A stretch of DNA of 64,000 bases from positions 310,001 through 374,000 of the forward strand of contig NZ_SNUQ01000001.1 of NCBI RefSeq assembly GCF_012027555.1, written 5' to 3'. The translations under genes were made by a program, and so were the position numbers. The stretch comes from Thermococcus sp. CX2 (lineage in GTDB: Archaea; Methanobacteriota_B; Thermococci; Thermococcales; Thermococcaceae). The notes below the pieces were generated by a model that saw nothing but the letters and a program-made list of their open reading frames with translations, had not been told where the DNA came from and searched no databases. Below, piece after piece: positions 30,559 through 34,596 of this stretch. Positions within the stretch are counted from its first letter, which is position 1, and the number at the start of each line of letters is the position of its first letter.

Positions 30559-31893
30559 TCAATCCCTCCAGTCGAGAAGCCTCTTTTCGCCCTCAATTTT
30601 CTTATACGGGGCGATGTCCATCGTAATCTCAAGGGTCCCGAGGTATTCACCGTTATCATCGAAGAGCGGCACGTATTTGATGTAAACGTACTTCGGCCCC
30701 ATGCGTATCCAGAAGGTGGCCTCTTTCTTCCTGCCCTCTTTGAAGGCCTTGAGGATTTTGTTCACTATGTGGACGCTCTTAGGTGGATGGCAGAGCTGGA
30801 CGGGCCTTCCGAGGACGCTCAACGAGCGCGCAAATATCCTCTCGCCTGGCGAGAAGAACCTCACGCGGTCGTCCTTGTCTATGAAGGTCACATCAACCGG
30901 AAGGGCCTCGAATATCTTCTTGAGTTCCTCTATGCTTACGTATCCAGTTCCAAGGTCTATGTCACCCTCGCGTTTGAGCTCAGCTTTGTCAAACTCCAGC
31001 GGCTGTCCCTTAAGGGCCTGCTGAACCTCCTTTGGAAGGCCGAGGAGCTGCTCTGCATTCAGCGTCGGGTCAATCTGCCAGGGGTGAAGGGGCTCAACGT
31101 CGGGGTTCCACTCCTTTGGCTGGACTTTGTAGTAGCCAAACTCGTCTTCCTGAAGTCTTATAGCCTTCCACTCACCCTCGCTCAGCAGGGCCTTAACGGT
31201 GGGATAGAATATGTTGTTTTCCCTGAAGACCATGTCAGTTAGGGCAAAGGCCGCCTCGTTTGCCTTCTCCTTGAACTTCGTGACAAACTCTTCCCAGGGC
31301 ATCTCCTCCCTCTTCCTCAAAAGCTCGGCGAGGTGCTTTATCATGAACCTTATCTCGTCGTGCTTCGTCCAGAGGACAGTTGCTATTGCCGTTAGGCCGC
31401 GGCGCTCGATGTATGGGAAAATGAGCATCTCCTCGCGGTTGTAGTGGGTGAAGCCGACCTTCCTGAGGTTGGTCACTATCTCTTCAAGAATCCCGAGGAT
31501 TTCCTTTCTCATGCGCTCGTCCTTGGTGTTGACCAGTGTCGAGGCGTATAGGTTGAGCATCTCGGCGTCCTTCATGATCTCCTTGTTCTCCTCGTAGAGA
31601 GTCCTGAGCGGGTGTCCCTCCGGAAGGTCCTTCTCTTCGAGCTCGTCAGTACCCGAAACTGCCTCGCGGAAGAGCTCGACGTGGATGTCGCACATCTTGG
31701 CTATCTCCTTGGCGGAAATGCCTTCCTTCACCAGCTCCTGCTCGATGAGCGGGATTTCAAGGGGGGAGATGCTACTTAAGACTGCCTTAAACTCGGCCTT
31801 CAGCTTGTTTACATCTTCTCCCTCGTGTATCTTTTTGAGCAGATTCTTGAGCTGCTCCTTCTTATACTCCCTGTTGTTCAGTAACTCGGTCAT
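30559..31893 (-). CDS. DUF438 hemerythrin-PAS protein
   Basis: A 444-residue protein. The N-terminal DUF438 domain (about 1-85, starting MTELLNNREYKKEQLKNLL) is followed by a hemerythrin HHE four-helix domain (about 90-235) with iron-ligand candidates in FTHYNREEMLIFPYIE, WTKHDEIRF and FRENNIFYPTV, and a C-terminal PAS domain (about 310-435, FIDKDDRVRFFSPGERIF). Such proteins bind non-heme di-iron and are linked to NO, O2 or cluster repair. The ATG follows AGGTGACTAAG. It heads a three-gene operon whose start site is covered by a perfect palindrome. Confidence 0.9.
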   Translation of the reverse strand: MTELLNNREYKKEQLKNLLKKIHEGEDVNKLKAEFKAVLSSISPLEIPLIEQELVKEGISAKEIAKMCDIHVELFREAVSGTDELEEKDLPEGHPLRTLYEENKEIMKDAEMLNLYASTLVNTKDERMRKEILGILEEIVTNLRKVGFTHYNREEMLIFPYIERRGLTAIATVLWTKHDEIRFMIKHLAELLRKREEMPWEEFVTKFKEKANEAAFALTDMVFRENNIFYPTVKALLSEGEWKAIRLQEDEFGYYKVQPKEWNPDVEPLHPWQIDPTLNAEQLLGLPKEVQQALKGQPLEFDKAELKREGDIDLGTGYVSIEELKKIFEALPVDVTFIDKDDRVRFFSPGERIFARSLSVLGRPVQLCHPPKSVHIVNKILKAFKEGRKKEATFWIRMGPKYVYIKYVPLFDDNGEYLGTLEITMDIAPYKKIEGEKRLLDWRD

Positions 31894-31906
31894 CTTAGTC
31901 ACCTTC

Positions 31907-31920
31907 ATGACATATGTCAT
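31907..31920. promoter_or_regulatory. Operator A (DUF438 operon)
   Basis: Perfect 14-base palindrome ATGACATATGTCAT. On the minus strand the TATA box CTTATAAG (31929-31936) lies about 15 bases before it, so the operator covers the expected transcription start. The same element recurs at four nearby promoters. Confidence 0.75.
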
Positions 31921-31928
31921 AGGTGGCG

Positions 31929-31988: not shown

Positions 31989-32007
31989 CTTATATGCCGT
32001 GTGTCAT
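31989..32007 (+). promoter_or_regulatory. TATA box and operator B (DUF2249-DUF1858 gene)
   Basis: CTTATATG (31989-31996) overlaps ATGCCGTGTGTCAT (31994-32007). The right half GTGTCAT is identical to the other operators; the left half is degenerate and matches operator E (CCGTGyGTCATA). Binding here would cover the region just downstream of the TATA box. Confidence 0.65.
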
Positions 32008-32028
32008 ACATTCGAACGGTGAGCGAAA

Positions 32029-32508
32029 ATGATGCTCGATGTTAGGGGTTTGAAACCTCCCCAACCAGCTGTTATGATCCTCGAGAGCCTCGGGAAGCTC
32101 AAGGTCGGGGATACACTTGAGGTTATAGGCGACAGGCCCTTTGTTGACCTGATTCCCAAGTTGGAGGAGGCAGGATACAACATTGAAGTTAGGGAAGTCG
32201 GCGGTTTCTTCGTCCTCAAAGTTACGAAGACCGAAAGCTCGAAGGAGCTTAAGATGGAAGTTAAAGAGTGCGACGATAGGCTGGATGAGATAACAGAAGA
32301 CACCAACGTGGCCAAGCTTCTCAAGGCCTATCCTCAGTCCCTTGAGATACTCGTCAAGTATGGCTTCTCCCCGCTCCAGAACCCTGTGATGAGGAAAACC
32401 CTGGCCAGGACAGTGACCCTTAGGCAAGCCAAAAAGCTTCTCGGTATGAGCGACGAGAAGTTCAAGGCCACGATGGAAGAATTGAAAAAACTGGAGGAAA
32501 GGAATTAA
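32029..32508 (+). CDS. DUF2249-DUF1858 protein
   Basis: A 159-residue protein. The N-terminal half (MMLDVRGLKPPQPAVMILES...) is a DUF2249/TusA-like fold; the C-terminal half (DTNVAKLLKAYPQSLEILVKYGFSPLQNP) is DUF1858. DUF1858 and hemerythrin domains together make the bacterial ScdA/RIC cluster-repair proteins; here they sit on separate but co-regulated genes. A role in repairing stress-damaged Fe-S centres is inference. The start follows GGTGAG; a second ATG is directly next. The 3' end overlaps hcp by 4 bases. Confidence 0.85.
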   Translation: MMLDVRGLKPPQPAVMILESLGKLKVGDTLEVIGDRPFVDLIPKLEEAGYNIEVREVGGFFVLKVTKTESSKELKMEVKECDDRLDEITEDTNVAKLLKAYPQSLEILVKYGFSPLQNPVMRKTLARTVTLRQAKKLLGMSDEKFKATMEELKKLEERN

Positions 32509-33845
32509 TCCATCTCCTCCACTGAGATGGCCCCATCTTCCACCCTTATTCCCTTGCTGAGCATGTCTTTCAGATCCTTCTCTGGGTCACCAGTCAACCT
32601 GAGGTCAAACTGCTTCCTTAGGATTTCGAAAACGTTCGGCGTTAGGAATTCTGGCGGTTTTGGACCTATGTAAATGCCCTTCACTCCCAGGTACAGAAGG
32701 GTGTAAAGTATGCCGATGGCCTTCTGCTCCATCCACGACAGTACTATGCTGACGGGGAGTGAGTTAACGTCGGTTCCGAGCTCGCTTGCCAGAGCTAGTG
32801 CTATCTCTATTATCGAGTAGACGTTGTTGCACTGGCCGAAGTCCAGGAACCTTGGAATGCCATCGATCGTCCCGTAGTCCCTCGCGTTGTAGCGGAACTT
32901 TCCACAGGCGGCCGAGAGTATTATGGCATCGTCAGGGATGAGCTCTGTGAGCCTCTCGTAGTAGCCCATGCCCTTGTGGGGCGTATCACAGCCACCGACG
33001 ACGAAGATGTGCCGTATCTTGCCCTCCTGGATGAGCTCTATGAGCTTATCTTTCATGGCGAGCACATTGGTGTGGTGGAAGCCCGTGAGAAGCTGTCCCC
33101 CTTCAATTTTTTCCATCCTCGGGGTTTCCAGAGCCCTCTTTATCAAAGGCTCGAAGTCGTAGTCCCTAATGTGCGGGACTCCCTCAAGGCCCGCTATTCC
33201 AACTGTGAATATTCTGTCCGCGTAGGCCTTTGTCGGCTGCTGGACGCAGTTGCTCGTGCCCAGTATAACACCGGGGAATTCTGCAAACTCCTTTCTCTGG
33301 TACAGCCAGCTCCCGCCCCAGTTGCCGTAGAGCGACTTGAACTTCCTCAGTTTGGGATAGGCGTGGGCGGGGAACATTTCTGCGTGGGTGTAGACCTTGA
33401 TGTCATCCTCGAGTCCCATCTCTTCAATCTGCTTGAGAAGCTCGTACAACGCCTTATAGCTGTGACCCGTGACGAGGATGCCGTGACCTTCCTCGGTGCC
33501 AGTGGGCACTTTCACGGGCTCCGGCCTTCCAAAGGTCTCAACATACGCCCTATCCAGAAGCTTCATGGCCTCAAGATGGATTCTTCCGTTCTCAAGGATG
33601 AGCCCAAGGAAGCGGTTTTTGTCGAAGTTGACGTTCGTCAGAGTAGAGTATAGGGCCTCGGCAAGGAAGTGGCCAATCTCTGGATTGTCGTAGCCAACCT
33701 CGAGCGCGTGGTAGTAGTAGGCGGCGGTGCCCTTTATTCCATAGAGCAGCGCTTCCTGAAGGGAGTTCAAGTCCGGGTCTTTTCCGCACACGCCCCTAAC
33801 GGTACAGCCACCACTCAGGCTCATCGAACACTGGTTGCAGAGCAT
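32505..33845 (-). CDS. hcp: Hybrid cluster protein (hydroxylamine reductase-like), short class
   Basis: A 446-residue Hcp of the shortened class found in hyperthermophiles. It starts MLCNQCSMSLSGGCTVRGVCG, which holds the cysteines of the N-terminal [4Fe-4S] cluster. Hybrid-cluster ligands are in FVVGGCDTPHKGMGYYE, ILSAACGKFRYN and FGQCNNVYS. Hcp reduces NO or hydroxylamine and protects against nitrosative stress. The start with GGAGGTG upstream is chosen because homologues begin MFCxQC; an ATG 8 codons earlier (33869, after AGGAGGGATC) is possible. The promoter carries operator C. Confidence 0.93.
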   Translation of the reverse strand: MLCNQCSMSLSGGCTVRGVCGKDPDLNSLQEALLYGIKGTAAYYYHALEVGYDNPEIGHFLAEALYSTLTNVNFDKNRFLGLILENGRIHLEAMKLLDRAYVETFGRPEPVKVPTGTEEGHGILVTGHSYKALYELLKQIEEMGLEDDIKVYTHAEMFPAHAYPKLRKFKSLYGNWGGSWLYQRKEFAEFPGVILGTSNCVQQPTKAYADRIFTVGIAGLEGVPHIRDYDFEPLIKRALETPRMEKIEGGQLLTGFHHTNVLAMKDKLIELIQEGKIRHIFVVGGCDTPHKGMGYYERLTELIPDDAIILSAACGKFRYNARDYGTIDGIPRFLDFGQCNNVYSIIEIALALASELGTDVNSLPVSIVLSWMEQKAIGILYTLLYLGVKGIYIGPKPPEFLTPNVFEILRKQFDLRLTGDPEKDLKDMLSKGIRVEDGAISVEEMD

Positions 33846-33882
33846 CCCAACACCTCCAGGCAACTTCATCACGATCCCTCCT

Positions 33883-33896
33883 ATGACACGTGTCAT
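33883..33896. promoter_or_regulatory. Operator C (hcp)
   Basis: Perfect palindrome ATGACACGTGTCAT. The hcp TATA box (GTTATAAATG read on plus, 33906-33915) lies about 10 bases upstream on the minus strand, so the expected start is inside the operator. This placement fits a repressor. Confidence 0.78.
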
Positions 33897-33905
33897 ATAC
33901 TTCGA

Positions 33906-33915
33906 GTTATAAATG
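33906..33915 (-). promoter_or_regulatory. TATA box of hcp
   Basis: CATTTATAAC on the minus strand; the expected transcript start about 25 bases downstream is within operator C. Confidence 0.7.
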
Positions 33916-34074
33916 AAGATACCTTCATAAAAAGTTTGTGGTTTCTTAACCTAAAAGACCACATTTACATAGCCGGAAAGAAAATATTTGGGACGTATAA
34001 TTGCATTAACTGTTACATCATGTTCTAATTTTTGAATTAAATGTTTTCAACTTTCCCGCTCTCCCAAAGCATAT

Positions 34075-34088
34075 ATGACACGCGTCAT
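34075..34088. promoter_or_regulatory. Operator D (between hcp and the regulator)
   Basis: ATGACACGCGTCAT, with perfect outer halves ATGAC/GTCAT. Its centre is 192 bases from operator C and 111 from operator E. It overlaps a TATA-like CATATATG but no clear gene follows, so it may be an auxiliary operator for looping, or control a short transcript. Confidence 0.65.
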
Positions 34089-34177
34089 TACATTGTGATC
34101 TCCTGAGAACCATGAGTTATGACAAAGAAAATGTTCATTTAATCCAACCTGAGGCTTGGCCAAAATTCGACCAAAAG

Positions 34178-34199
34178 TCTTAAATATTCCGTGCGTCAT
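34178..34199 (+). promoter_or_regulatory. TATA box and operator E (HTH regulator gene)
   Basis: TCTTAAATATT (34178-34188) as TATA box overlaps ATTCCGTGCGTCAT (34186-34199). The ATG follows at 34210, so the transcript is leaderless or nearly so and the operator lies between TATA box and start: an autoregulation layout. Confidence 0.65.
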
Positions 34200-34209
34200 A
34201 TAAGGATAC

Positions 34210-34596
34210 ATGAAAACTAATGCTTTCGAAGTTGCTTCACGCTATGTCTACCCCTCGTTGAGGCGCAGACTTGTAGAGATACTCAGGGAGAAGGGACTCA
34301 AGCAGACACAGATAGCGGAGCTTTTGCACATTACCCAGTCCGCCGTTTCTCGATATCTGAGGATGGACAGGGGGGCTTTAATAGACGTCGCCCAGTTCCC
34401 AGACATAGATGATGACCTCAAAAAGCTCGCCGAGGAGATAATCAGGAAGAGACCTACCGAGTACGAAATCCACTCGATGCTAGTTCAAATCTCGCTGGAG
34501 ATGCTGGGCAAAGGCTACGTCTGTTCTTTCCACTCCCAGATTGACCCCGAGTTGAACCCTGCCCAGTGCAGGGTCTGCCTAGAGCTGTTCGGTTAG
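34210..34596 (+). CDS. HTH regulator with C-terminal Cys/His cluster, candidate regulator of hcp
   Basis: A 128-residue protein. Residues 32-51 (QTQIAELLHITQSAVSRYLR) form an XRE-like helix-turn-helix. The C-terminal 25 residues hold C105-x2-H108 and C120-x2-C123, four ligands suited to an Fe-S cluster or zinc. The layout fits small archaeal COG2522-type regulators. Its own promoter carries operator E, and operators A-D lie at neighbouring stress genes, which makes it the obvious candidate for the protein binding ATGACAyryGTCAT. This is inference from context. The start is preceded only by AAGGA. Confidence 0.82.
   Translation: MKTNAFEVASRYVYPSLRRRLVEILREKGLKQTQIAELLHITQSAVSRYLRMDRGALIDVAQFPDIDDDLKKLAEEIIRKRPTEYEIHSMLVQISLEMLGKGYVCSFHSQIDPELNPAQCRVCLELFG

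What the first reader, a model, noticed from the sequence alone, without database searches (positions are those of the whole stretch)
34210..34596. Small HTH protein with C-x2-H ... C-x2-C as likely redox or NO sensor of the regulon
The 128-residue protein has an HTH at 32-51 and four possible metal ligands, C105, H108, C120 and C123, at its C-terminus. Its own promoter carries operator E between TATA box and a nearly leaderless start. A labile Fe-S cluster here would give direct NO sensing, but by a protein unrelated to NsrR (Rrf2) or HcpR (CRP/FNR).
Basis: partly seen in the sequence, partly recalled or inferred. Interest (0 to 1): 0.72.

Follow-up and report, generated by a model that had tools for sequence, protein, structure and literature searches.

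The report
Archaeal local repressor of Hcp–hemerythrin genes
This small DNA-binding protein of heat-loving archaea almost certainly controls a tiny set of genes that deal with reactive nitrogen or oxygen species, and its metal-binding tail is real and perfectly conserved, but the same tail occurs in vitamin-B1 regulators of oxygen-loving archaea, so zinc is a likelier occupant than an NO-sensing iron-sulfur cluster.

Summary
ORF 34210-34596 encodes 128 aa with an HTH. C105, H108, C120 and C123 are invariant, with fixed spacing C-x2-H-x11-C-x2-C, in all 63 distinct Thermococcales orthologues. Operator TATGACnnnnGTCATA (A-D near-perfect, E degenerate) is conserved at target promoters. In this genome 4 of the 5 sites with ≤1 mismatch lie in this cluster. 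Across 94 genomes, exact sites average 3.4 where the regulator is intact and 0.3 elsewhere. Unlinked hcp and DUF438 genes still carry the site.

It is best read as a local repressor. Its strictest partner is the DUF438-hemerythrin-PAS gene (61 of 62 regulator-bearing near-complete genomes), not hcp (46 of 62).

The Fe-S/NO-sensor idea is not shown, and comparison weakens it. The protein is the HTH plus ligand segment of the ThiN-fused thiamine-regulator (ThiR-type) family, without the ThiN domain. Haloarchaeal HTH-ThiN proteins, two beside thiamine genes, carry the identical C-x2-H-x11-C-x2-C, so these ligands predate the hcp link and persist in aerobic salt-lovers. Zinc (structural, or a thiolate redox switch) is likelier than a labile Fe-S cluster. 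The Fe-S reading remains open and directly testable. No held paper describes this regulon.

The parts
34210..34596 (+). HTH regulator, 128 aa; HTH helices 32-39 and 43-51; stand-alone HTH plus Cys3His segment of the ThiR-type family
34522..34578 (+). Codons of the four putative metal ligands C105, H108, C120, C123 (C-x2-H-x11-C-x2-C)
   Evidence: invariant in 63/63 orthologues, spacing 11 in all
34185..34200 (.). Operator E: TATTCCGTGCGTCATA, degenerate left half over the regulator's own TATA box (34180-34187), perfect right half GTCATA
34074..34089 (.). Operator D: TATGACACGCGTCATT, second site between hcp and the regulator
33882..33897 (.). Operator C: perfect TATGACACGTGTCATA between the hcp TATA box (minus strand, about 33907-33913) and its ribosome-binding site
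31993..32008 (.). Operator B: TATGCCGTGTGTCATA overlapping the TATA box of the TusA-DUF1858 gene
31906..31921 (.). Operator A: CATGACATATGTCATA just downstream of the DUF438-hemerythrin-PAS TATA box
32505..33896 (-). hcp, class III hybrid cluster protein; real start probably ATG at 33869 after GGAGGG
   Evidence: TIGR01703 E 5e-195, Prismane; alignments of other genomes start at residue 8-9
32029..32508 (+). TusA-like + DUF1858 (hybrid-cluster-associated) protein, regulon member
30559..31920 (-). DUF438-hemerythrin-PAS protein, the most strictly co-occurring regulon member; real start probably ATG at 31893

Best explanation
The protein is a local transcriptional repressor, presumably dimeric, that binds the palindrome TATGACnnnnGTCATA placed over or just downstream of TATA boxes. 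It thereby blocks the archaeal initiation machinery at four genes: DUF438-hemerythrin-PAS, TusA-DUF1858, hcp (class III) and its own gene. It is the N-terminal half (HTH plus C-x2-H-x11-C-x2-C segment) of the archaeal HTH-ThiN (ThiR-type) regulator family, freed of the ThiN effector domain and put in charge of a reactive-species regulon. With no ligand-binding domain left, the Cys3His site is the most likely place where the signal acts. Most likely it holds zinc, either as a structural knuckle or as a thiolate switch that loses zinc on oxidation or nitrosation; a labile Fe-S cluster is possible. Shown by sequence comparison: ligand invariance, the operator, its dependence on the regulator across genomes, target identity, site position and family relationship. 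Inferred: repression, zinc, the site as sensor, and nitrogen or oxygen species as signal.
For: Operator enrichment in the window and near-exclusivity to this cluster in the genome. Exact sites average 3.4 per genome with the intact regulator and 0.3 without, Mann-Whitney p 7e-11. Unlinked DUF438 (G005, G007, G008, G009) and hcp (G005, G028) genes carry the site, while the DUF438 gene of regulator-less G017 has none. Regulator and DUF438 co-occur in 61 near-complete genomes with one exception each way. The regulator is decayed in G011 and G027, which lack all targets. Sites sit at TATA/start regions of all four genes. Ligands invariant. HTH-ThiN relatives share the ligand set. Model: C105 and H108 on one short helix, C120 and C123 at the start of the last.
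Against: No binding, expression or metal data exist. The C-terminal model confidence is only about 70-77 and coordinates could not be inspected, so metal geometry is untested. Repression is inferred from site position; site D, far from any start, could serve another role. Co-occurrence statistics are not corrected for phylogeny. Zinc is inferred from relatives in aerobes, not measured.
Confidence: 0.55

Rival explanations
1. One reading: C105, H108, C120 and C123 hold a labile [2Fe-2S] or [4Fe-4S] cluster that NO (or O2) destroys, releasing the repressor from DNA, functionally like NsrR.
For: All four ligands invariant, no other cysteine in 62 of 63 orthologues; regulon content (hcp plus a hemerythrin-domain protein) resembles the bacterial NO regulons of HcpR/NsrR (PMC1274295); strict anaerobe; Cys3His ligation is known in Fe-S proteins such as IscR (own knowledge).
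Against: The same ligand set with the same spacing is found in haloarchaeal HTH-ThiN regulators, two beside thiamine genes, so it is not an adaptation to NO sensing; 20 of 69 regulator-bearing genomes have no hcp.
Confidence: 0.2
2. The HTH protein is not itself the sensor. The DUF438-hemerythrin-PAS protein senses O2 or NO at its di-iron or PAS site and relieves repression by acting on the HTH protein, whose metal site is purely structural.
For: Near one-to-one co-occurrence of the two genes, tighter than with hcp; hemerythrin and PAS domains with no recognisable output domain; ligand segment shared with regulators that have a separate effector domain.
Against: The same co-occurrence is expected if DUF438-Hr-PAS is simply the main effector; no evidence of physical interaction.
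Confidence: 0.2
3. The four residues are incidental or a disulfide pair set, not a metal site.
For: Thermococcales HTH-ThiN paralogues keep only C105 and C120 (H108 is Y, C123 is replaced), so the fold tolerates loss of two.
Against: All four invariant in 63/63 with fixed spacing while neighbouring residues vary; CxxH/CxxC pairing is typical of metal knuckles.
Confidence: 0.05

Closest known systems
HTH-ThiN (ThiR-type) archaeal thiamine regulators: the 299-aa Thermococcales paralogue and haloarchaeal proteins annotated 'thiamine-phosphate synthase family protein'
   Same: Homologous over residues 7-124 in haloarchaeal proteins; same HTH; same C-x2-H-x11-C-x2-C in four of four haloarchaeal examples
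   Different: No ThiN domain (PF10120); controls an Hcp/hemerythrin/TusA cluster, not thiamine genes; about 30% identity
NsrR (Rrf2 family, Fe-S, NO)
   Same: Represses hcp plus a hemerythrin-like gene in bacteria (PMC1274295)
   Different: Unrelated fold; no PF02082 hit for this protein and no Rrf2 protein over cut-off in this genome
HcpR (CRP/FNR family)
   Same: Controls hcp and often hemerythrin or ferredoxin genes in anaerobic bacteria (PMC1274295)
   Different: No cNMP-binding domain here or anywhere in this genome
EnfR (Tfx family) of Thermococcus onnurineus
   Same: Small archaeal HTH repressor of a metalloenzyme cluster (PMC10570040)
   Different: Different family and C-terminal fold; similarity limited to about 25 HTH residues, E 0.018

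Membership tests
HTH-ThiN / ThiR-type regulator family | Homologous N-terminal HTH plus linker | tested here: met
   tblastn over 92% of query to haloarchaeal HTH-ThiN proteins, E down to 2e-7; profile match 7-124
HTH-ThiN / ThiR-type regulator family | C-terminal ThiN domain (PF10120) | tested here: not met
   Protein ends at residue 128; PF10120 found in relatives but not here
HTH-ThiN / ThiR-type regulator family | Target genes of thiamine metabolism | tested here: not met
   Operators lie at DUF438, TusA-DUF1858, hcp and own gene
NsrR / Rrf2 | Rrf2 winged-HTH domain PF02082 | tested here: not met
   No hit; genome has no Rrf2 protein over cut-off
HcpR / CRP-FNR | cNMP-binding domain PF00027 | tested here: not met
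   No hit in protein or genome
Fe-S based NO sensor (functional class) | Conserved Cys/His ligand set | tested here: met
   Four ligands invariant in 63 orthologues
Fe-S based NO sensor (functional class) | Iron-sulfur cluster bound | not testable with these tools
   Needs purified protein, metal analysis and spectroscopy
Fe-S based NO sensor (functional class) | Regulon of NO/reactive-nitrogen defence genes | tested here: inconclusive
   hcp and a hemerythrin-domain protein fit, but hcp is missing from 20 of 69 genomes
Site-specific local repressor | Operator co-occurs with regulator and overlaps promoter elements | tested here: met

The most novel reading that the evidence does not exclude
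A ThiR-type archaeal regulator lost its thiamine-sensing domain and turned its Cys3His metal site into a direct NO (or O2) sensor, by Fe-S or zinc-thiolate chemistry. It would be a sensor family independent of Rrf2 and CRP/FNR, controlling class III Hcp and a DUF438-hemerythrin-PAS protein in hyperthermophiles.
Probability: 0.35. Interest if true: 0.78.

Novelty: new variant of a known kind. Interest (0 to 1): 0.5.

Why it matters
No regulator of archaeal hcp was found described in the papers held here, and what class III Hcp and DUF438-hemerythrin-PAS proteins do in hyperthermophiles is open. A defined operator, a four-gene regulon and natural regulator-minus genomes make the inducing signal directly testable in genetically tractable Thermococcales. 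The regulon would then reveal by its inducer what these proteins are for.

Tried and rejected
Homology to solved structures: only generic HTH matches by sequence or fold (best E 1.6), so nothing bears on the C-terminal segment. EnfR as relative: rejected, Tfx family. PHROGs: generic HTH only. Rrf2 or CRP/FNR alternatives in the genome: none found. Genome-wide extra targets: the one extra G000 site (C2:420025) has an imperfect outer base and an untypical core (CTGA) and is read as chance; G022/G043 and G009 extra sites are noted but not established. Literature: no held paper on this regulator or regulon; two ThiR papers sought by DOI are not held.

Full report
Observation. ORF 34210-34596 (+) encodes 128 residues. 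Pfam places an HTH at 17-54 and an AlphaFold2 model from 38 orthologues (mean pLDDT 87, C-terminal blocks 71-77) puts helices at 32-39 and 43-51, then two long helices, then short helices starting at C105 and near C120/C123.

Conservation. A search of 94 Thermococcales genomes found a full-length orthologue in 69. In 63 distinct sequences C105, H108, C120 and C123 never vary, nor do D112 and P117, while many neighbours do; the spacing C-x2-H-x11-C-x2-C is constant in all 63 and 62 have no further cysteine.

Operator and regulon. TATGACACGTGTCATA gives four window hits with up to 3 mismatches against 0.08 expected, plus E. In the whole genome only five sites match TATGACnnnnGTCATA with at most 1 mismatch and four lie here. 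Across 94 genomes, ATGACnnnnGTCATA without mismatch averages 3.4 oriented hits in the 69 genomes with an intact regulator and 0.3 in the other 25, some of which hold fragments of the cluster in incomplete assemblies. Where targets are unlinked the site goes with them: DUF438 in G005, G007, G008, G009 (150-900 kb away) and hcp in G005 and G028 carry it, whereas DUF438 of regulator-less G017 has none; expected per region at up to 1 mismatch was 0 in shuffles. One exception, G091, shows no site by its DUF438 gene. This is strong but indirect evidence that this protein binds this operator.

Which genes matter. Among near-complete genomes the regulator co-occurs with DUF438-hemerythrin-PAS in 61, with one regulator-only and one DUF438-only genome; with TusA-DUF1858 in 47 (none without the regulator); with hcp in 46. 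All 69 regulator genomes have at least one target. Decayed regulator copies lie in G011 and G027, which lack all three targets. So the regulon is better called a hemerythrin/TusA/Hcp regulon than an hcp regulon. These counts are not corrected for phylogeny.

Promoter anatomy. For hcp and DUF438 the operator follows the TATA box and precedes a ribosome-binding site (GGAGGG, GGTG) and ATG, over the expected start of transcription; for TusA and the regulator its left half overlaps the TATA box. Both layouts suit a repressor. This also suggests that hcp starts at 33869 and DUF438 at 31893. Class III is assigned to this hcp from its short length and from the literature naming P. furiosus Hcp class III (PMC10502027).

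Family. Outside Pfam's generic HTH models the nearest relatives are HTH-ThiN proteins. The Thermococcales paralogue (about 299 aa, 30% identity, PF10120 E 3.5e-46) keeps C105 and C120 but has Y for H108 and another residue for C123. Some relatives in sister orders have C-x2-H followed by C-x2-C at shorter spacing, often with an additional upstream C-x2-C, while others have lost part of the set; several stand-alone ones sit beside nadA. Four haloarchaeal plasmid-borne HTH-ThiN proteins align over residues 7-124 and have exactly C-x2-H-x11-C-x2-C, two of them beside tenA or thiD. So the ligand set is ancestral to the family, was kept in aerobic halophiles, and cannot be read as an invention for NO sensing. 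The window protein is this module without its ThiN domain.

Mechanism. Shown: a conserved regulator-operator-target system and a conserved Cys3His set. Inferred: repression; metal binding; zinc more likely than Fe-S because of the haloarchaeal distribution; the site as sensor because no other ligand-binding domain is present; reactive nitrogen or oxygen species as signal because Hcp and hemerythrin-domain proteins recur in the bacterial HcpR/NsrR regulons (PMC1274295). Rivals are a labile Fe-S cluster and a sensor role for DUF438-hemerythrin-PAS itself.

Known or new. It is neither Rrf2 nor CRP/FNR, and the genome encodes no protein over the Rrf2 cut-off and no cNMP-binding protein. No held paper describes the regulon, though subscription journals are mostly missing, so prior description cannot be excluded. 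I rate it a new variant of a known kind.

Noticed in passing
between 31921 and 32028; clear copies e.g. G018:C1:1518509, G034:C1:549210: A second palindrome, TGGGCAnnnnTGCCCA, lies between the divergent DUF438 and TusA-DUF1858 promoters in about 20 Thermococcus genomes and nearly nowhere else in those genomes; it is degenerate in this window. It may be a site for a second regulator.
   Followed up: partly
32029-32508: The TusA-like domain lacks the usual CPxP cysteine (here PPQP) and the DUF1858 part lacks its redox disulfide, so it is unlikely to act as a classical sulfurtransferase.
   Followed up: no
L168:2698 (G009): In one genome without hcp the operator also precedes a ferritin/rubrerythrin-like gene, a possible extra regulon member.
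   Followed up: no
L169:1659 and L170:1552: An operator-like site CATGACACTCGTCATA is shared by two genomes just upstream of a small membrane protein gene next to a hydrogenase maturation protease.
   Followed up: no
L112, L114, L115, L116: Stand-alone relatives of this regulator in sister orders sit next to nadA (quinolinate synthase), suggesting a separate NAD-related branch of the family.
   Followed up: no
L099 (G049:C16): A second, frameshifted and stop-containing copy of the regulator lies beside TusA/DUF438 while an intact copy lies beside hcp on another contig.
   Followed up: no
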